Source: a virus
DNA: 25,858 nucleotides
IMG/VR virus record: IMGVR_UViG_3300026512_000053
Span: 1-25,858 of that record
Reading direction: 5' to 3' (one strand)
Below the pieces are notes generated by a model. That model did not search any database. It saw nothing but the letters and a program-made list of their open reading frames with translations, and was not told the DNA's origin. Numbering within the stretch: position 1 is the stretch's first letter; every line of letters begins with the position of its first letter. A program made the position numbers and the translations under genes. Of this stretch, positions 1,165 to 25,858 are shown one piece after another.

Positions 1165-1551
1165 ATGCAAATTAGAAAAAAAGATTTACAAAAAATGATT
1201 GATGAATCAATTCAATTAAAATTAAATGAGAGTAATCGTGAATTTAAAATTGACGATGTTGCTTCAATAATTCAAAATTATCTTAAAACAATAGGTTTAA
1301 ATATTAGAATAAATTCTAATAAAATAGTTCCTTCATCAGAAGTAATGAATATTTATTCTGGTAAAATTAAAAATTTTGGTGAAATGTTTCCTGTTTTTAA
1401 ATCAGCAATATTAAATATTAATGTATTAGTATCTGAAGAAAATCAATTTATTACACTATTTTTAGATTATAGTTGGAAACATTATAGGGGTCGTAATGGA
1501 TATACTGCAACCAGAACATATAGAGATAACGCTTGGGAAATACGAGATTAA
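1165..1551 (+). CDS. Small protein with capsid-targeting-like N-terminus
   Basis: This 128-residue protein has a GGAG site 10 nt before its ATG. The first 22 residues (MQIRKKDLQKMIDESIQLKL plus NE) form a predicted amphipathic helix ending in Leu-Asn-Glu. The same position-22 LNE ending is found in the proteins at 13476 and 14071, whose N-termini are clearly similar. In T4, the prohead protease gp21 cuts after (Leu/Ile)-x-Glu and removes N-terminal capsid-targeting peptides from packaged internal proteins, and a gp21-like protease is encoded at 7572. An internal head protein is therefore a reasonable hypothesis. The rest of the protein ends with a Tyr/Arg/Trp-rich stretch and matches no family I know. 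Confidence 0.72.
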   Translation: MQIRKKDLQKMIDESIQLKLNESNREFKIDDVASIIQNYLKTIGLNIRINSNKIVPSSEVMNIYSGKIKNFGEMFPVFKSAILNINVLVSEENQFITLFLDYSWKHYRGRNGYTATRTYRDNAWEIRD

Positions 1552-2224: not shown

Positions 2225-2992
2225 ATGAAAGAAGCAAAGTCAAATACAAATATTAAAAAAGATATAATTTCAAAAAAAGAAGCAGAAATTAATAAATTAT
2301 TGAATAATATTAATTATGATATGATAATTCAATATGAAATAGAAAAAATTAAAAAAGATGTTTTTTATTTCATATTGAATTATTCATATATTCAACATCC
2401 AATTAAAGGTGTAATTCCATTTTCATTATATGATTTTCAAATAAAAACATTAGAACAGTTTGTAAATCATAGTTGAAATATTATTTTAAAATCGAGACAA
2501 ATGGGCATTAGTACATTAGTTGCTTCTTATGTTTGTTGAAAAATGATAACTAACGAATCTTATATTGTTAATATTATTGCGAATAAAGAAAGAACCGCAA
2601 AAGAATTAATAAATAAAATTTCATTAGTTTTTAATTTAATGCCTTCGTGAATTTTTAAAGCATTTAATATAAAAATTGAATCGGATAATGCGTTAAGTGT
2701 CAGATTATCAAATCGTAGTATTGTTAATGCTCAAGCAGCGTCAGAAGATGCTGGAAGAAGTTCTGCGGGAAGTTTGGTAATATGGGATGAAATGGCGTTC
2801 GGTAGAAGTGAAAGAATTATAAAGGAAATTTGAACATCAATAGTTCCTACATTATCAACTGGCGGAGATTTAATTTGTTTGTCGACTCCTTGTGTTTTGG
2901 GTAATACTAAAGTAAAAATTAGAAATAAAAAAACCGGAGAAATACAAGAAATTAATATTGAAGAGGTAATGAATAATGAAAAATATAAATAA
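2225..2992 (+). CDS. Terminase large subunit, N-terminal half fused to split-intein IntN
   Basis: This 255-residue protein is the ATPase half of a T4 gp17-type terminase, the motor that packages DNA into the prohead. Residues 90-97 (SRQMGIST) are the gp17-style Walker A and residues 184-191 (LVIWDEMA) the Walker B, with Asp188-Glu189. TGA at 2474, about 2538, 2648 and 2831 falls where the family has Trp (for example EIWTSIVPTLSTGG). The extein part ends at STP, residue 222. The frame then enters an intein N-terminus beginning with Cys (CVLGNTKVKIRNKKTG) and stops at TAA 2990-2992 after 33 intein residues. The nuclease half is encoded separately from 3082. The ribosome binding site is weak. 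Alone this product lacks the nuclease and should depend on trans-splicing. Confidence 0.9.
2891..2989 (+). other. Split intein N-terminal fragment (IntN, 33 residues)
   Basis: This segment starts with the nucleophile Cys1 directly after the terminase STP motif, as expected for intein block A (CVLGNTKVKI), and continues with charged residues (EINIEEV) to a stop codon. Known family: the AceL-TerL intein is also in a terminase and also split very early, with an IntN of about 25 residues. The position, length and Cys1 fit that atypical split class. Activity is inferred. Confidence 0.85.
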
Positions 2993-3068
2993 AATTGAAA
3001 AATATGGTATGGGTAATGTAAGAAAATCGAAAATTACAAAATGAAAGGTTATGATTATTACAAGGTAA
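2976..3068 (+). other. Short overlapping reading frame between the intein halves
   Basis: In the third frame, an ATG at 2976 opens a 30-codon reading frame ending at TAA 3066-3068. It overlaps the end of IntN and fills most of the 89-nt gap before the IntC start. The peptide is very basic (VRKSKITKWKVM) and uses one TGA as Trp. It is not recognised. It may be a remnant of intein or endonuclease sequence lost when the gene was split, or chance. It has no evident ribosome binding site. Confidence 0.25.
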
Positions 3069-3081
3069 TTTGGGTAAAATA

Positions 3082-3414
3082 ATGGAAAAGATAAAAAATA
3101 TTACAGAATGGGAAGTTTTGACACCATCAGGATGGTCTGATTTTGAAGGAATAAAAGAAAAAACTGTTGATAAATATTTAAAACTAAGTTTTGATGAAGA
3201 TTATTTAGAATGTACAATCGACCATGAAATAAAATTAAAAAATAATATTTTTACCAGAGCTGATATGTTGAGTGTAGGGGATAAAATACTGCATAAAAAT
3301 AAAATTGTAAAAATTATTAAAATAGAATATGTAAATAAAAAAGCTAAAGTTTATGATTTATTAAATGTTGAAAAACATAATGAATATTATACAAATAATA
3401 TTGTTTCACATAAT
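3082..3414 (+). other. Split intein C-terminal fragment (IntC, about 111 residues)
   Basis: The segment contains a conserved early motif (EVLTPSGWSDFEGI), block B with the TxxH signature (TIDH at 3214-3225), and blocks F/G (VYDLLNVEKHNEYY, then VSHN) ending in His-Asn before Cys+1 at 3415-3417. No LAGLIDADG or HNH endonuclease lies inside, so this is a mini-intein. From memory, AceL-TerL IntC has the same arrangement (ILSPNGF near the start, INVEK and VVSHN at the end). Residues needed for splicing are all visible. Confidence 0.88.
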
Positions 3415-4470
3415 TGTGGTCGGGGAGGACAGTTCTATAATCAATGAATTAAAGCATTGAATGGTGAAAATGAATTTAATCCAATTAAATTATCTTGAAA
3501 TTTACACCCCGACAGAGATGAAGAATGAAAAAACAAAATGATTACTAAATTTGGTGCAAGAGAATTTAATCAAGAATATGCATGTTCATTTTTAAGTTCC
3601 GGTACAAATGTTATTTCATCTTCAGTTATAGATTGATATAGCGAAAATCACGTTAAAGAACCAATTGAAAAACGATATAATGATAAATTTTGAATTTGAG
3701 AACACTCAATTGCTGATGATTCAGATATTAGATATTTTATTTCTTGTGATGTTGCAAGAGGTGATGGTGATGATAATTCAGCAATGAATGTTTATAAGGA
3801 AACAATATCAACTGGGATAATTGAACAAGTTGCAGAATATTATGGTAAAATTCCGACATCGACTTACGCAAAATATATTGTAGCGGTTGCAATTGAATAT
3901 AATAATGCTTTTGTTATTATTGAAAATAATTCAATAGGATGGAATACATTACAAAAAGTTATGGAATTATATGATAATGTATTTTGAAGTCCAAAAACTG
4001 CAAATGTTTATAAATCAATATCAATTGAAAAAGTAATTGAAACATTTAAAAATATGGATTTATTAGTACCGGGATTTTCAACTAATAAATCAACAAGAGA
4101 GTTATTGGTATTAAATTTAGAAGAAAAAATAAGATTAAAACAATTAATATTTCATTCTATTAGATTTATTAACGAATTAGATAATTTTATATACAAGGCA
4201 AGTGGTAAAGCAGAAGCGCGAAGTGGGTATCATGATGATTTAGTAATGTCATCGGGAATTGGTTTATTTATAATATATTTTTTACGAAAAATAAAAGATA
4301 TGGGATTCGATATTTATAATTATATGAATGAAAATATTAATGGAGTAGATAATATCGAAGGGACTGAAGATGATGTTTTAAATGATTTATACGCTTTAAC
4401 TCCAAAATCATATTCAGAAAATCAATTTGGTATTATCTCTGGACAGCAAGGTGAGGATGACTGATTTTAG
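3082..4470 (+). CDS. Split-intein IntC fused to terminase large subunit C-terminal half
   Basis: The first 111 residues are an intein C-terminal fragment and residues 112-462 are the nuclease half of the terminase. The extein begins CGRGGQFYNQW, so splicing would give the expected ...LSTP-CGRGGQFY junction. The RNase H-like nuclease motifs are present: SCDVARG (Asp223), VIIEN (Glu281) and HDDLVMS (Asp385-Asp386). Eight or more TGA codons fall on family Trp positions such as LSWNLHPDRDEEW. The spliced protein would have about 573 residues, close to T4 gp17 (610). ATG 3082 is preferred because it gives the same IntC start as in AceL-TerL, a few residues before VLTPSG. TTG 3070 is an alternative. 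The ribosome binding site is weak (AAGG at 3062). The stop is TAG. Confidence 0.9.
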
Positions 4471-4650: not shown

Positions 4651-6360
4651 ATGGCAAAAACAAAAAATACAGTAAAAACAAATAAATTATCAAGTGGTAA
4701 ATTTACTGAAATATTAAAGCAGTTATTTACTAATAACTTAACAATTACTACAGTTTCTAATAGTAATATAAATGTTGATAGTATAATTGGTAAAGATTTT
4801 AAAAAACATTCATCTGATGCTCAAAAAAATGAAGACCGTATTTATTCAATGTTATATGAATCAAATAATAAATATAATTTTGATAATTATGATTCTGTTA
4901 CAGTAACAAGGGAGCAACGGTATTCAGAATATGACCAAATGGATGACGACCCGATTATATCATCAGCATTAGATATATATGCGGATGAAGTAACTGTTAA
5001 AAATGAAACGGGTAATATTATATCAATTATTTCTGAAAATAAAGAAATTGTAGATATTTTAAATATTTTATTTAATAATATATTAAATGTTGAATTGAAT
5101 TTATGGGGATGGATTAGAAATACTTTAAAATATGGTGATTACACTCTTTTATTAAATATTACAAATAAGTATGGAATAACAGCATTTCATAATATACATC
5201 CTTCCAAAATTAAAATTGTTCAAAAACATGAAAGTGATACTAATGAACCATATTATATTGTTAATGATGATGAAAAACAACGATTAGAAATATTTGAAGT
5301 TGCACATTTTAAAACATTATCTGACTTTAAAAACTTACCATACGGAACATCAATTTTAAGAGGCGCATTAAGTCATTGACAATCTTTAAAATTAATGGAA
5401 GATGCTATGTTAATACATCGAATTACCAGAGCACCTGAAAGACGAATTTTTAAAATTGATGTTGGTAATTTAAAACCCGCAGATGCAAAACAACATATTC
5501 AAAACGTTAAAGATAGAATTAAAAAAGTTCCAGTTATTGATTCAAGGACCGGTAAATATAATTTAAGATATAATGTTCAAAATATGATGGATGATTTTTT
5601 TGTTACTAAACGTGGTAATAAATATGGTACTGAAATTGAAACATTATCAGGATTATCTGGAATAGAAATTGAAGATATTCAATATATGCAAAATAAATTA
5701 TTTGCTGCATTAAAAATTCCAAAAAGTTATTTAACATATGAAGAGGATGTAAATTCCAGAACAACTTTAGCAACTGAAGATGAAAGATTTAGTAAAACAA
5801 TTGCAAGAATTCAAACAACAGTAGTAATTCCAGTTTTATATAATGTAGCAAAACTTCATTTATTTGCATTGGGTATTCCAGAAACTGAATTAAATAATTT
5901 TAAATTGAAATTAAATGAACCATCATTAATTAGAGAAACATTAAAATTAGATTTAATTTCTGCAAAAATTAATTTAATTAGAGACGTAAAAGATAGTAAA
6001 ATGTTAAGTGTTGATTGGGCGTATAAACATATTTTTGAAATGGCTGATGAAGAAATTAAAGTTGAAAAAGCAAAAGTTATTGATGATACATACCAAGAAT
6101 ATGTTTTAGATAATTTACAAAATAATGGAGAATTATCCCCTGATAAACCAGTTAAAGCAGATTCAGACGATGAAGATATGTATGAATCAACTACAATACC
6201 ACAACCCGATAAACCACAAAAATTACAAAAAATTAATGCGTTAGATTCAATAGCACAAAAAGATAATAATATTAAAATTAATAATAGGTATAATGATTTA
6301 TATGAGTCGTATAAACATTGACTAACTAATGATAAATTAATAACAAACCATGGAGAATAA
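4651..6360 (+). CDS. Portal protein (T4 gp20-like)
   Basis: This 569-residue protein is probably the dodecameric portal at the head vertex, through which DNA is packaged and to which the terminase docks. It directly follows the terminase and is close in length to T4 gp20 (524). Family-like stretches include DDDPIISSALDIYADEVTVKN near residue 105, LRGALSHWQSLKLMEDAMLI near 235-255, IHRITRAPERRIFKIDVGNL just after, and the QYMQNKLFAALKIPKSYL segment near 350, which resembles gp20-type portals. Two TGA codons (5377-5379 and 6319-6321) must be read as Trp; otherwise the gene would look broken in two. AAGGA lies before the ATG. The acidic, Pro/Gln-rich C-terminal 80 residues are probably disordered. 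Confidence 0.88.
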
Positions 6361-7339: not shown

Positions 7340-7585
7340 ATGACATATAAATATTTTAGTAAAGATGAAATTGTGGAATTACATACAATAATTAAACAAG
7401 ATATTGCTGAATTATTTTTTACATTATTTGTTAAAAAAAATGTTTGACAAAGTGCAATGAAAGAATCTATTGATATTACAGATGATGAAGTTAAATATTT
7501 AAATGAACAAATTAATAATAGAATTGATTTAACGATTAATAATTATATAAAGGAGAAGGAAGAATTTAAAAATGAAACAAAATAA
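7340..7585 (+). CDS. Small helical protein overlapping the prohead protease gene
   Basis: This 81-residue protein starts 3 nt after the previous stop and overlaps the protease gene by 14 nt, so the three genes are probably translated in a coupled operon. One TGA (in KKNVWQSAMKE) is read as Trp. It is predicted to be two or three helices with a charged C-terminus (IKEKEEFKNETK). It occupies the place of T4 prohead core genes 67/68, but I see no sequence match. Its last codons hold the AAGGAG site of the protease gene. Confidence 0.7.
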
Positions 7586-8237
7586 AGTAATTGATTATCA
7601 ACAGTTTAAAATAGACAATATTGAAACAGTAATTAAAAGTATTAATGAAAATACTTCAACAATGAGTGGTGGAAGTTATAATCCAGTATTTTTGACAGGT
7701 ACTATTCAACGTGCAAATGCAGTTAACCATAATGGTAGACTTTATAGAAAAGATATTCTTAGTAAACAAATTGATGAATTTATAACAACTAAAGTTAATA
7801 CAAATAATGCATTAGGTGAATTAGACCATCCAGAAGAAAGGGATTGGATTTCATTGCAAAATGTTTCACATAATATCAAAAAAATTTGGTGGGATAATGA
7901 TGATGTTAAGGCAAAAATTGAAATTCTTGATACTCCTGCTGGTCATATTTTAACTGCATTAATTAAAAGTGGAATTAATCCCGGAATTAGTTCACGTGGT
8001 TTAGGTAGTTTTGTTAATAAAAAAGTTCTTATAAATGGTATTGAAGAATATGTTTCAGAAATTCAAGATGATTATAAATTAATTACATTTGATTTTGTTA
8101 CAAATCCTTCAACACAAGGTGCTTTCTTAAAACTTTCAGAATCTGAATCATTGACAAAATCCGAAATTGAAAAAAATGCAAGAATTAATGAAATTAATAA
8201 TAACATAACAAGTATTTTAGAATTGTTAACTAAGTAA
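7572..8237 (+). CDS. Prohead maturation protease (T4 gp21-like)
   Basis: This 221-residue serine protease should cut scaffold, capsid and internal proteins during head maturation. His86 in GELDHPEE and Ser140/141 in GISSRGLG are in the places expected for the gp21/U9 family catalytic pair, and T4 gp21 has about the same length and spacing. The segment FDFVTNPSTQGAFLKL near the end is also typical. The N-terminal 30 residues are polar and may be a self-cleaved propeptide. The AAGGAG site lies within the overlapping upstream gene. In T4 the enzyme cuts after (Leu/Ile)-x-Glu, and four other proteins in this window end their N-terminal helix with a matching or near-matching motif. Only Trp codons TGG occur in it. 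Confidence 0.9.
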   Translation: MKQNKVIDYQQFKIDNIETVIKSINENTSTMSGGSYNPVFLTGTIQRANAVNHNGRLYRKDILSKQIDEFITTKVNTNNALGELDHPEERDWISLQNVSHNIKKIWWDNDDVKAKIEILDTPAGHILTALIKSGINPGISSRGLGSFVNKKVLINGIEEYVSEIQDDYKLITFDFVTNPSTQGAFLKLSESESLTKSEIEKNARINEINNNITSILELLTK

Positions 8238-13475: not shown

Positions 13476-14054
13476 ATGAAAATTACAAAAAATGAATTAG
13501 AAATATTGATTAATAAAAAAGTTAAAAAAATGTTAAATGAAAGTTCAATAACATCTGTTTTAACAGATAGAGATTTAGATATTTTTATTGAAAATATTGA
13601 AAAAACAATTAAAAAATATTTTCCGAAATCAAATATTGATGTTTTTAGAGTTTCAAAGAAATGGGCATCTTATGATATGCCAGATATTCAAATTAGATTT
13701 ACATTTGAACCAAAAAATATGATACAATTTGATGATATGTTTTCATCAATGTTTCCATTATTTTTTAAAATAATTCCAGCAAAAAATATTAATGGTATTG
13801 ATAGTAGAGATATTACAGAAAATAATATTTCTTTAGTTCCATCAAATAACATAAACGCATTAAAAATTAAATCTGTTAACAAAAATAGAGGATTACAACT
13901 TGTTCGTTTAAAAGTTAGAAAAGTTTCTGGAACAACTGATAAAATATTAAAAAATATTGATAAAATTTTTAAAACCGCACATAAAATGATTAAAGATAAT
14001 TATAATAATTTAACTGATAAAAATAAATTATTAGTTGATAAATATTTAAAATAA
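13476..14054 (+). CDS. Protein with capsid-targeting-like N-terminus, paralogue 1
   Basis: This 192-residue protein has a strong AAAGGAG site. Residues 1-22 (MKITKNELEILINKKVKKML plus NE) are an amphipathic helix ending in LNE, the type of site cut by T4-like prohead proteases. The N-terminus closely matches those at 14071 and 1165. The C-terminal 45 residues (GTTDKILKNIDKIF, then MIKDNYNNLTDKNKLL) also match the next gene, so the pair arose by tandem duplication. The middle has diverged and holds predicted beta strands (IQIRFTFEP). I propose a protein packaged in the head and injected with DNA. This is inferred from the N-terminus and the gp21-like protease at 7572. No family is recognised. 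Confidence 0.75.
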   Translation: MKITKNELEILINKKVKKMLNESSITSVLTDRDLDIFIENIEKTIKKYFPKSNIDVFRVSKKWASYDMPDIQIRFTFEPKNMIQFDDMFSSMFPLFFKIIPAKNINGIDSRDITENNISLVPSNNINALKIKSVNKNRGLQLVRLKVRKVSGTTDKILKNIDKIFKTAHKMIKDNYNNLTDKNKLLVDKYLK

Positions 14055-14070
14055 TAAAGGAGATAAAACA

Positions 14071-14616
14071 ATGAGAATTACAAAAAATGAATTAGAAGTA
14101 TTGATTAATAAAGAAGTTAAAAAAACATTAAATGAAATGAGTATAAACGAATCTGAAACATTAATGACAGATGATGAAATTAATAAATTTATAGATGATT
14201 TAAAACGAATTGGAAAAAAATATTTTCCAAAATCATTTCATGATGTTAGAATTTATAAAGGACTTGGAAAAAGTATTGCATACGATTTTTCAATTGAAGC
14301 AAAACAAGATTGGGAGAATAACATATTTCAAAATTCTCCAGTTGGTTTTGTTAAGTTAATATATTCAAAAAAATATAATGATGATTTAACAATTCCCCTT
14401 GAAGTAGAAGGTGGAAACATTGCAATGGTTTTAAAACCCGATAATAATTATATGGTGTATAGTCGAAAAAAAATTCCATTTAGAAAAGCAAGTGGTGATA
14501 CTAAAAAAATATTAAAAGCATTTGATAAACTATTCAGCAAAATGAAACAAATGGTTAAAGATAATTATGACAATTTCACAGAAAAAGACAAAGCAATAAT
14601 TAAAAAATATATATAA
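14071..14616 (+). CDS. Protein with capsid-targeting-like N-terminus, paralogue 2
   Basis: This 181-residue protein lies 16 nt after its paralogue, with its own AAAGGAG site. Residues 1-22 end in LNE exactly as in the neighbours, and a second possible site (INE) lies at about residue 27. The C-terminal region (SGDTKKILKAFDKLF, then MVKDNYDNFTEKDKAI) matches 13476. The central part (DVRIYKGLGKSIAYDFSIEA) is different in sequence but similar in size and predicted strand pattern. Function is unknown. As for its partner, a packaged internal protein is the best guess. The diverged middle of two tandem copies is what is often seen for phage proteins under pressure from host defences, though that is speculation. 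Confidence 0.75.
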   Translation: MRITKNELEVLINKEVKKTLNEMSINESETLMTDDEINKFIDDLKRIGKKYFPKSFHDVRIYKGLGKSIAYDFSIEAKQDWENNIFQNSPVGFVKLIYSKKYNDDLTIPLEVEGGNIAMVLKPDNNYMVYSRKKIPFRKASGDTKKILKAFDKLFSKMKQMVKDNYDNFTEKDKAIIKKYI

Positions 14617-15383: not shown

Positions 15384-15974
15384 ATGAATAAAAATGAATT
15401 AAATAAATTTATTAATAAATTAGTAAATGAATCAATAAATGATGTAATAATTAATAATCAAAATGATGTTTCAATTAATGAGCATATTGTTAATATTATT
15501 AGTACTAAAGATAAAATGAAATATATTGATAAAGTTTGAGAAATGCTTATTGCATCATATAAGTATATTGGAGGTTTTAAATCATTTCCGAACAAACAAT
15601 CAATGATTGATAATAGTTATATTTGGAAATTATTAAGAGTTAATGGTGAAATTTATGCAGTAATAATTTATAAATATAATAAAAATTACGGTAGAAAATG
15701 TGTTGCAATGGGAACAACACATGGTAAACGCAGACAGTTAGTTAATTTGGTAAAGGAAATATTACGATTTTCTTTTATGGAAGTTTCAGGTAAAGCAGAA
15801 AAATTTTTATTTAATGATTGTGGTGCTAAAAATTATGTTATTAAACCCGAAATTATTCAAAAAGTAATGCATAATAAAAATATTGAAATTATTGATGATA
15901 CTTATTATGTTCGACAATTAAAAGATGGTTCTGTTGTTAAAAAAGTTGCAGTGGGAACATTGTTTAAGAAATAA
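15384..15974 (+). CDS. Phage protein with short targeting-like N-terminus and YIGGFKS domain
   Basis: This 196-residue protein begins 2 nt after the hydrolase stop, with AAGGA upstream. The first 16 residues (MNKNELNKFINKLVNE) resemble the LNE-type N-termini of 13476, 14071 and 1165 but are shorter and end in V-N-E. The domain from about residue 55 (SYKYIGGFKSFPNKQSMI, then YIWKLLRVNGEIYAVIIYK, the GRKCVAMGTTHGKR segment and a late KNYVIKPEII) resembles an unnamed domain found in many T4-like phages, where it also often follows a short helical N-terminus. I recall this pattern rather than a named family. TGA at 15537-15539 is Trp. A packaged internal protein is plausible. Confidence 0.75.
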
Positions 15975-21807: not shown

Positions 21808-23064
21808 ATGGATGAAAATACAAAAGATAATGAAAATCAAAATTTTAAATCTAAAAAAATAAAATTAATAAAAGATAAAGATACAAAAATATTAGACTAT
21901 GGTATTGAAACAAATATTATGTCTCCTTCTGAATATTATGAAGATTTATCAACTAAAAATGTAGTTTTAGTTTCTGAAATATTTGATAAAGAATCTAATG
22001 ATAAATTAGAAAATATAATTGTTCCGATTAGTGAAAATATTAATAAAGTTTATTTTGAATTAGAGTCAAATTATACAAATGTCGAAGAAGAACCAGTTGA
22101 GAAACCAAATCTGAATTTATATCTATTAATAGGTGGTAGAGATGAAATTGAAGAACCTCTACCAGAAATTCCACATACAATTTTAACATTTAGAACAACA
22201 ACAGATAATGAATCAATTAAATTACCTTTAGAATCAAATGGTAATTATGATTTTAATGTTGATTGGGGTGATGGAACAAATAATGATATTACGAGTTATG
22301 ACCAAACAGAAGTTGAACATACTTATATTACTGCTGGTGATTATGATATTAATATTACAGGGACGTTAGAAGGTTTTAATTTTCATAATGGTCATTCTGA
22401 TAGTAACAATAAAATTATTGATATTAAACGATGGGGTGATTTAAAATTAAGAACTACTAATTACGGCTCAGATGGATGGTATTTTTATTACTGTAATCAG
22501 TTAGAAACTTTTAGCGCCACAGATGCACCAGATTTAAGTGAAGTTAGTAGTTTTGAAAGTTTATTCTTATCTTGTTCCAAATTTAATGGAAATATAAATC
22601 ATTGGAATGTTAGTACTATAACAAATATGTATAAGGCATTTCAATCATGTAAATATTTCAATCAACCATTAGATAATTGAGATGTTAGTAATGTAATTGA
22701 TATGGGTCAGATGTTTTATCAAGCAACTAAATTTAATCAATCATTAAATAATTGAGATGTTAGTAGTGTTACTAATATGGCATATACATTTTATTCTGCG
22801 TTTAAATTTAATCAACCATTAAACAATTGAAATGTTGGTAATGTTGTTAATATGAATCAAATGTTTTATCAAGCATTGGTATTTAATCAACCATTAGATA
22901 ATTGAAATGTTAGTAATGTAACTGATATGTCACGAATGTTTATGAATGCTAATGTATTTGACCAAGATATTCATAATTGAAATGTTGATAATGTTACAAG
23001 TTATTATCAATTTAAAGCAAATTGTTTATTAACTGATGAGCATACACCATCAAAATTTTTATAA
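21808..23064 (+). CDS. PKD and BspA-like (DUF285) repeat surface protein, copy 1
   Basis: This 418-residue protein is probably a tail-fibre or adhesin-like protein. Residues 1-120 are polar and acidic and unrecognised. A PKD-like domain follows (about 125-190) with DFNVDWGDGT, VEHTYITAGDYDINI and a GTLEGFNFHNG motif. From about 245 there are BspA-like repeats of the form FNQPLDNWDVSNVTDMSxMF. Their Trp codons lie at 22603, 22678, 22753, 22828, 22903 and 22978, exactly 75 nt apart; the first is TGG and the rest TGA. With the standard code the protein would end at 290 residues. A good AAGGAG site precedes the ATG. It has no signal peptide, which suits a virion protein better than a secreted one. 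Confidence 0.85.
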
Positions 23065-23746: not shown

Positions 23747-25411
23747 ATGAAAACATTTTTAGATGAATTAAAAGATACGAAAACAGGAATTGTTGTACAA
23801 CTAACAAACGGTAAACAATACTATATCTTTGACGATTATGACGATACCTTTGAATTTACAAAAATAGAAAATACAGATTATGATTCAGTTGAAAAAACAA
23901 TTGAAAAAATTCAATTAAATGATAATTTTGTATCAATATGAAGAACGACAATTAATAATGAAATGATAAAATTACCATTGGTTGATTACGGAGAATACAA
24001 TTTTACAGTAGAATGGGGGGACGGGAGTTTCGATAAAGTAACTGAATATAATCAAGATTCAATAATGCATACTTATTTGGAACCAAATGATTATACAGTT
24101 AAAATATACGGAAAGTTAAAAGGTTTTAATTTTACGGATTCATTTAGTTTAAATTCTAATAATTTAATAGCAATTCTAAATTGGGGAGTTTTAGAATTAA
24201 TTGATTCTCAAAAATCAAATATTAACGGGATTTTTAAAGGTTGTGTTAATTTAGAATTAATTAAATCTTTATCAGAATTGAAATCAGATAATCTTACAAA
24301 TGCGACTTCAATGTTTGAAAATTGTAATAAATTAAAAGATATAACTGGATTAATTAAATTTAAGAAATTTCATAAAGTTAAAAAATTTGAAAATATGTTT
24401 AAAAATGTTACTTTATCAACTAACGTTTATGATATTTTTTTAACTCATTTAAATAATAGTTTTTTACCAATAGATATACCTGAAGATTCAAAATTAAATA
24501 TAAATTTTGGAAATTCAAAATATAGTAAATCAAAACAAGTTAGAAACGATTTGAATATTAGATTTAATATTGTTGATGGTGGTGAAAATTTAAATATGAG
24601 TATTTTAACTTTTAAAACAACTACCGGAAATGAACCAATTAAATTACCATTAGAAGCAACTGGAAATTATAATTTTACCGTTGATTGGGGAGATAATACA
24701 AGTGATGTAATTATAAGTTATGACCAATCAGAAGTAAATCATTATTATGAAAATGCTGGATTACATGATATTTATATTTCAGGAATGTTAGAAGGATTTA
24801 ATTTTTATCATGGATTTAATAACAGTAAAGATAAAATTATTGATGTCAAACAATGAGGGAATTTAAAATTAAGAACAATTAATTATGGTTCAGACGGTGC
24901 TTATTTTTGTCAATGCTCCAATTTAGAAACTTTTAATGCAGAAGATGCTCCTGACTTAAGTGAAGTAACAAATTTAATGTACACATTTTATGGGTGTTCT
25001 AAATTTAATGGAAATATAAATCATTGGGATGTAAGTAATGTGACAAAATTTACACAAATGTTTGAGCACGCTTATAAATTTAATCAGCCTTTAAATAATT
25101 GAAACACCAGTAATGTTACCGATATGTTTGCAATGTTTTATGAATGTTATGAATTTAATCAACCTTTAAATAATTGAGATATTAGTAAAGTAACAAGAAC
25201 TTGAGATATGTTTTGACGTTGTTATAAATTTAATCAACCATTAAATAATTGGGATACAAGAAATGTCGTCAAAATGCATGGAATGTTTTATAGAGCATAT
25301 AAATTTAATCAAAATATACATAATTGAAATGTTAGTAAAGTAACTGATTGAGGTGATTTTAGAAATTATTGTCCTTTATATAAATCGTATACTCCTTCAA
25401 AATTTAGATAG
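23747..25411 (+). CDS. PKD and BspA-like repeat surface protein, copy 2
   Basis: This 554-residue protein has an N-terminal domain of 64 residues (MKTFLDELKDTKTGIVVQL then NGKQYYIFDDYDD), nearly identical to that at 25512. A PKD-like domain follows (EYNFTVEWGDGS, then IMHTYLEPNDY), then a linker with LRR-like pieces (FENCNKLKDI). A second PKD-like domain (NYNFTVDWGDNTSD) and BspA-like repeats closely resemble copy 1. Repeat Trp codons at 25025, 25100, 25175, 25250 and 25325 are 75 nt apart and alternate between TGG and TGA. Other TGA codons include 23939, 24854, 25202 and 25214. The stop is TAG. It looks like a fusion of a copy-1-type protein with an extra N-terminal module. The role is probably host attachment. 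Confidence 0.85.
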
Positions 25412-25511: not shown

Positions 25512-25858
25512 ATGAAAACATTTTTAGATGAATTAAAAGATACGAAAACAGGAATTGTTGTAAACTTAACAAATGGTAAACAATATTATATTTTTGATGA
25601 TTATGATGATACTTTTGAATTTGCAAAAATAGAAAATACAGAATATAGTACAATTGAAAAGACAATTGAAAAAATTCAATTAAATGATAATTTCGTTTCG
25701 ATATGAAGAACAACAATTAATAATGAGACAATAAAATTACCTTTAGTTGAATATGGTGAATACAATTTTACTGTAGAATGAGGAGATGAAAGTTTTGATA
25801 AAGTAACCGAGTATAACCAAGATTCAATAATGCATACATATTTAGAACCAAATGATTA
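25512..25858 (+). CDS. PKD surface protein, copy 3 (3' end outside window)
   Basis: The first 115 residues are visible and align almost perfectly with copy 2: the MKTFLDELKDTKTGIVV domain, then INNETIKLPLVEYGEYNF and a PKD-like part to the window edge. The upstream AGGAAAAACAAAAA leader is also duplicated. TGA at 25704-25706 and 25779-25781 are Trp. At the second, copy 2 has TGG (24014-24016), which is direct evidence for the codon reassignment. The third gene of this tandem family probably continues with BspA-like repeats, but that part is not visible. Confidence 0.82.

What the first reader, a model, noticed from the sequence alone, without database searches (positions are those of the whole stretch)
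2225..4470. Terminase large subunit encoded as two genes joined by an atypically split intein
The ATPase half ends in a 33-residue IntN starting at Cys after STP. The nuclease half begins with a 111-residue IntC ending in HN before Cys+1. Block A, block B (TIDH) and blocks F/G are all visible, and joining the exteins restores a normal gp17-like protein. The very short IntN and long IntC match the rare split class known from AceL-TerL, also in a terminase. DNA packaging in this phage would then depend on protein trans-splicing.
Basis: partly seen in the sequence, partly recalled or inferred. Interest (0 to 1): 0.93.

Follow-up and report, generated by a model that had tools for sequence, protein, structure and literature searches.

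The report
Split-intein phage DNA-packaging motor gene
A T4-like phage that reads the stop codon TGA as tryptophan makes its DNA-packaging motor protein as two separate pieces that should be joined by a self-splicing split intein; it is a convincing new example of a kind already known from a few phage terminases, placed at an insertion site that only one other split example shares in the set I collected.

Summary
Homologues carry Trp at most of these positions. The N-half (2225-2992) ends in a 33-aa IntN. After an 89-nt spacer, the C-half (3082-4470) starts with a 111-aa IntC ending in HN before Cys+1. The joined exteins align without a gap at the junction to intein-free TerL (41% over 471 aa). 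IntC's closest solved relative, by sequence and by predicted fold, is the Cat consensus atypically split intein (6dsl). A second, diverged phage contig (41% identity) has the same split, the same STP|C site and the same code, so an assembly error is very unlikely. AceL-TerL itself was recovered in IMG/VR and sits at a different TerL site. Related inteins, often split, occupy at least five sites in TerL. In the cultivated Campylobacter phage NCTC12673 the two halves lie about 27 kb apart on opposite strands. Trans-splicing in the window phage is inferred, not shown.

The parts
2225..2890 (+). N-extein: ATPase domain of the T4-type terminase large subunit (222 aa), 4 in-frame TGA=Trp
   Evidence: PHROG TerL matches; T4 gp17 structures 3ezk/2o0h/3cpe E 1e-13 to 1e-14, query 38-222; W at TGA columns
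2891..2989 (+). IntN, 33 aa, Cys1, block A
   Evidence: 54-58% identical over 26 aa to IntN of phages HY03, phiR1-RT, G2494 and phiS; 53.5 bits against a 14-sequence IntN profile that includes it
2990..2992 (+). TAA stop ending the N-half
2993..3081 (+). 89-nt spacer with stops in all frames, no intervening endonuclease gene, no structure above chance, no Rfam match
3082..3414 (+). IntC, 111 aa, blocks B, F, G (TIDH ... SHN); alternative TTG start at 3070
   Evidence: phmmer to 6dsl_B E 2.7e-11; AF2 pLDDT 91; best fold match 6dsl_B Z 15.5
3415..4467 (+). C-extein from Cys+1: last part of the ATPase domain and RNase H-like nuclease of TerL, 8 in-frame TGA=Trp
   Evidence: PHROG TerL matches; T4 gp17 E 1e-8; joined exteins align to Mel-JY01 TerL 41% over 471 aa, E 6e-109
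4468..4470 (+). TAG stop of the C-half
4651..6360 (+). T4-like portal protein (gp20), code 4: genomic context
   Evidence: Pfam Portal_T4 E 5e-77
7572..8237 (+). T4-like prohead protease (gp21): genomic context
   Evidence: Pfam Peptidase_S77 E 3e-30

Best explanation
The phage encodes TerL as two polypeptides. IntN on the ATPase fragment docks into the partly folded HINT domain at the start of the nuclease fragment. Cys1 makes an N-S acyl shift, Cys+1 takes over the acyl group, Asn111 cyclises, and a normal TerL is released with a peptide bond in the coupling motif (STP-CGRGG). Because the break lies in the ATPase coupling motif, neither fragment should work alone, so DNA packaging would wait for splicing. 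Shown here: the sequence anatomy, homology, predicted fold, conservation in a second phage, and the genetic code. Inferred: assembly, splicing chemistry and dependence of packaging on it.
For: Exact extein join: one alignment crosses the junction (residues 41-508) to intein-free TerL of Microcystis phage Mel-JY01, and immuto and RM378 agree. IntC to Cat intein 6dsl_B by sequence and as top fold match, Z 15.5, 105 residues at 1.3 A, IntC residue 1 at about Cat residue 29, i.e. the same split position. All splice-junction residues present (Cys1, block B His, penultimate His, Asn, Cys+1). Independent case L107: IVISTP|CVTGDTKVKIRNKITGEIKMVNIEDIYENNL stop, then a separate C-half ending SHN|CGVGN(W), also full of in-frame TGA, with C-halves 41% and portals 38% identical to the window. 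Related split TerL inteins in cultivated phages, including NCTC12673 with halves about 27 kb apart on opposite strands.
Against: No splicing assay or proteomics. The record is a 25.9-kb fragment, so a second intact TerL elsewhere cannot be excluded. The C-half has a weak ribosome-binding site. No Trp-tRNA(UCA) or other tRNA is in the fragment.
Confidence: 0.9

Rival explanations
1. The split is an assembly or sequencing error in a contiguous mini-intein; splicing would then be in cis.
For: Contiguous versions exist at other sites (L104, L122, L124, L125-L128, L180/L181), and the record is a metagenomic contig.
Against: The 89-nt spacer carries stops in all frames and the two open frames do not overlap, so one indel does not mend it; L107 has the same arrangement with a different spacer.
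Confidence: 0.03
2. Degenerate remnant: terL is broken here and a functional copy lies elsewhere in the unsequenced part of the genome.
For: The record is a fragment.
Against: Both halves keep the ATPase (SRQMGIST, WDEMAF, STP) and nuclease motifs and the splice residues; the gene sits before portal and prohead protease; the same split is kept in a phage only 41% identical.
Confidence: 0.04
3. The two fragments work as a non-covalent two-subunit terminase and the intein halves are vestigial or only cleave.
For: T4-like phages do carry other genes in pieces that work without joining (ribonucleotide reductase, cited in PMC3322345 and PMC10448857).
Against: The break lies in the coupling motif, and the catalytic intein residues are conserved across the 40-sequence set; vestigial ones would be free to decay.
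Confidence: 0.03

Closest known systems
AceL-TerL and GOS-TerL atypically split inteins, and the engineered Cat consensus (PDB 6dsl)
   Same: Same protein family (TerL), short IntN (AceL 25, GOS 37 aa; PMC11766414) and about 104-aa IntC; IntC homologous (E 2.7e-11) and same split position; two adjacent genes with a short spacer, as in AceL (L174/L175)
   Different: Insertion site STP|C instead of EFE|CEFLGS (AceL, read here in L174/L175); different phage; TGA=Trp
Split TerL inteins in T4-like coliphage/Yersinia/Campylobacter phages (HY03, phiR1-RT, phiS, NCTC12673)
   Same: IntN 54-58% identical over 26 aa (HY03, phiR1-RT, phiS); same split point; two-gene TerL
   Different: Insertion at Walker B (DE|CAF); an endonuclease gene lies between the halves in HY03/phiR1-RT; halves unlinked in NCTC12673
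TerL6-f inteins of mycobacteriophages such as Chandler gp6 (PMC5050341)
   Same: Also placed in the terminase ATPase coupling (C-) motif
   Different: Not described as split there ('split intein' does not occur in the text); sequence and exact residue not compared here

Membership tests
Atypically split TerL inteins (AceL/GOS/Cat) | IntN much shorter than IntC, on separate genes | tested here: met
   33 aa and 111 aa, stop at 2990 and start at 3082
Atypically split TerL inteins (AceL/GOS/Cat) | Sequence homology and same split position as Cat | tested here: met
   6dsl_B E 2.7e-11, top fold hit Z 15.5 with IntC residue 1 at Cat residue 29
Atypically split TerL inteins (AceL/GOS/Cat) | Catalytic residues: Cys1, block B Thr-x-x-His, C-terminal His-Asn, Cys+1 | tested here: met
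Atypically split TerL inteins (AceL/GOS/Cat) | Protein trans-splicing activity | not testable with these tools
   needs expression of both fragments
AceL-TerL insertion-site allele | Insertion at EFE|CEFLGS between ATPase and nuclease domains | tested here: not met
   Window site is model position 192 (STP|C), AceL copies L174/L175 at 248; so not an AceL-site allele
T4-type terminase large subunit (gp17) | ATPase plus RNase H nuclease restored when exteins are joined | tested here: met
Genetic code 4 (TGA=Trp) | TGA at conserved Trp columns, never a stop | tested here: met
Genetic code 4 (TGA=Trp) | tRNA-Trp(UCA) available | not testable with these tools
   No tRNA in this fragment; host unknown

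The most novel reading that the evidence does not exclude
Pre-split inteins behave as a mobile family that has settled repeatedly at the functional motifs of TerL (Walker A, Walker B and its upstream strand, coupling motif, ATPase-nuclease linker), and the coupling-motif site is a lineage of TGA-recoded T4-like phages; keeping the halves apart may act as an AND-gate that delays packaging until both genes are expressed.
Probability: 0.2. Interest if true: 0.7.

Novelty: new member of a known kind. Interest (0 to 1): 0.45.

Why it matters
It adds a complete natural pair with a short IntN (useful for protein labelling) at a TerL site that only one other split example in my set shares. It shows that a recoded, T4-like phage probably makes its packaging motor by trans-splicing. 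The comparison set collected around it indicates that split TerL inteins are common rather than rare, including in cultivated Campylobacter, E. coli and Yersinia phages in which the requirement for splicing could be tested directly.

Tried and rejected
First IMG/VR scan with the C-half alone found no relative; alignments were needed. Two DNA patterns for the STP|C site were wrongly built (they could not match the known L107); the corrected one finds only L107, but it is an exact-match pattern and a weak negative. The genome-contig scan found no relative. Programmed frameshift rejected (no overlap of open frames). Intron in the spacer: no Rfam match, no structure above shuffles. TGA=Gly (code 25) rejected: TGA columns are Trp/aromatic, except one column of an unnamed gene that is Gly (6402), outweighed by the rest. 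IntN alone gives no meaningful PDB hit (too short). NCBIfam and Pfam intein models are below threshold, so the intein call rests on homology to 6dsl, on relatives and on fold. The intein tree does not resolve where the window and L107 inteins come from; their pairing has weak support (76/30).

Full report
1. Observation. The window is a 25,858-base virus record in IMG/VR, classed linear and probably a fragment. In the standard code the region 2225-4470 holds only short frames. With TGA read as Trp it holds two clean genes, 2225-2992 and 3082-4470. The first ends ...STP followed by a 33-residue IntN; the second begins with a 111-residue IntC ending SHN before Cys.

2. The code. In 31 genes of the window there are 41 in-frame TGA and 37 TGG, and every gene ends in TAA or TAG. 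Aligned homologues of TerL, portal and sheath have Trp in 710 of about 1,096 cells at TGA positions; eight of the TerL columns are mostly or wholly Trp and the others largely Tyr or Phe. TGA=Trp is therefore well supported. No tRNA is in the fragment and the host is unknown.

3. TerL. Both halves match terminase large subunit families and T4 gp17 structures. The joined exteins align in one piece, with no gap at the junction, to intein-free TerL of Microcystis phage Mel-JY01 (41% over 471 aa, E 6e-109), and also to Flavobacterium phage immuto and Rhodothermus phage RM378; the window's STP|CGRGGQFYN stands against STP|NGVGNFFHK. The intein thus sits in the ATPase coupling motif (T4 TTPNG). Neighbouring genes are T4-like portal, prohead protease, sheath and tube.

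4. The intein. IntC matches the Cat consensus atypically split intein, 6dsl chain B, at E 2.7e-11. An AlphaFold2 model of IntC from 40 relatives has mean pLDDT 91, and its best solved match is again 6dsl_B (Foldseek E 4e-8; VIA Z 15.5, 105 residues, 1.3 A). IntC residue 1 falls at Cat residue 29, so the break is at the same place. IntN is 54-58% identical over 26 aa to the IntN of coliphages HY03, phiS and G2494 and Yersinia phage phiR1-RT.

5. Relatives. Scans of IMG/VR with IntC alignments gave 80 and 70 loci. Mapped on a TerL profile, the inteins lie at five main places: Walker A (position 72), just before Walker B (154-156; a further group at 159), Walker B DE|CAF (162), coupling motif STP|C (192) and ATPase-nuclease linker EFE|CEFLGS (248). 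In a non-redundant set of 81, counting only cases where the IntN has the extein context of the same site, 37 are split, 11 contiguous and 33 have no IntN on the fetched locus. Position 192 holds two sequences only: the window and L107. L174/L175 carry the IntN CVYGDTMVETEDGKIKIEDLYKRLA, which is the AceL-TerL IntN as I remember it (25 aa, as in PMC11766414), at site 248.

6. Independent case. L107 (IMGVR_UViG_3300035102_000301) has the same site, the same split (31-aa IntN, spacer, separate IntC gene) and in-frame TGA codons. It is distant from the window: C-halves 41% and portals 38% identical. The split is thus conserved or recurrent, not an assembly error. L105/L106 are a third TGA-recoded case, split at Walker B.

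7. Does this kind of split work in nature? In cultivated phages the same arrangement occurs: HY03 and phiR1-RT with an endonuclease gene between the halves, phiS, and Campylobacter phage NCTC12673, where the N-half with IntN lies at 46,755-46,027 on the minus strand and the C-half at 72,897 on the plus strand. In the latter only trans-splicing (or non-covalent assembly) can give TerL. No record of a test was found in the papers searched; the library is partial.

8. Mechanism. Shown: two genes, complete set of intein residues, fold, precise extein join. Inferred: IntN docking, acyl shift at Cys1, transfer to Cys+1, Asn111 cyclisation, ligated TerL, and packaging that needs it.

9. What is known. 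Atypically split TerL inteins are known (AceL-TerL, GOS-TerL, Cat; PMC11766414). Inteins in the coupling motif are known from mycobacteriophage TerL6-f (PMC5050341). A Campylobacter phage terminase with intein plus endonuclease gene was noted in 2012 (PMC3322345). The window combines a split intein with the coupling-motif site and a TGA=Trp code. I rate it a new member of a known kind; the wider pattern of many sites and many split forms is more interesting than the single case, but rests on a set biased by my queries.

Noticed in passing
window 2319-2389: Near-perfect hairpin (26-nt arms, 92% complementary, 8-nt loop) inside the TerL N-half coding sequence; RNA fold -27.9 kcal/mol, z -7.9, no shuffle as good. 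Homology of the protein runs through it without a gap.
   Followed up: partly
window 1165-1551, 13476-14054, 14071-14616, 15384-15974; L107 5251-6655: Several small proteins share a short N-terminal motif like ITKNELEVLINKEVKKxLNE; L107 proteins have a similar SEQKLREIIKEEI motif. Possibly a capsid-targeting signal cut by the gp21 protease (lead from memory, untested).
   Followed up: no
window 21808-23064, 23747-25411, 25512-25858: Three genes of the same type (PKD-like part plus DUF285/BspA-like repeats in the first); the last two start almost identically, as a tandem duplication.
   Followed up: no
Campylobacter phage NCTC12673, L256 and L021: Both TerL halves (46027-46755 minus; 72897 onwards plus) lack a coding feature in the RefSeq record; the halves are unlinked and each ends or begins in an intein half.
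   Followed up: yes
L107 1732-3975: Portal gene of this TGA-recoded phage carries a further, contiguous intein (CIALDTNIPLLSG ... IIIHN|S).
   Followed up: no
L103 5962-8886: TerL C-half carries a second large intein (CLSGDTRVITNKG ...) of the size expected with a homing endonuclease, besides the split one at Walker B.
   Followed up: no
L010 (Campylobacter phage CP21): TerL appears to be broken by several inteins: one in the Walker A region, plus two IntC-like stretches and an IntN near Walker B, with an extra gene between pieces.
   Followed up: partly
L009, L017 and many IMG/VR loci: Where the halves are 500-1,100 bp apart an extra gene, annotated endonuclease in HY03 and phiR1-RT, lies between them, like the 'fractured gene' arrangement.
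   Followed up: partly
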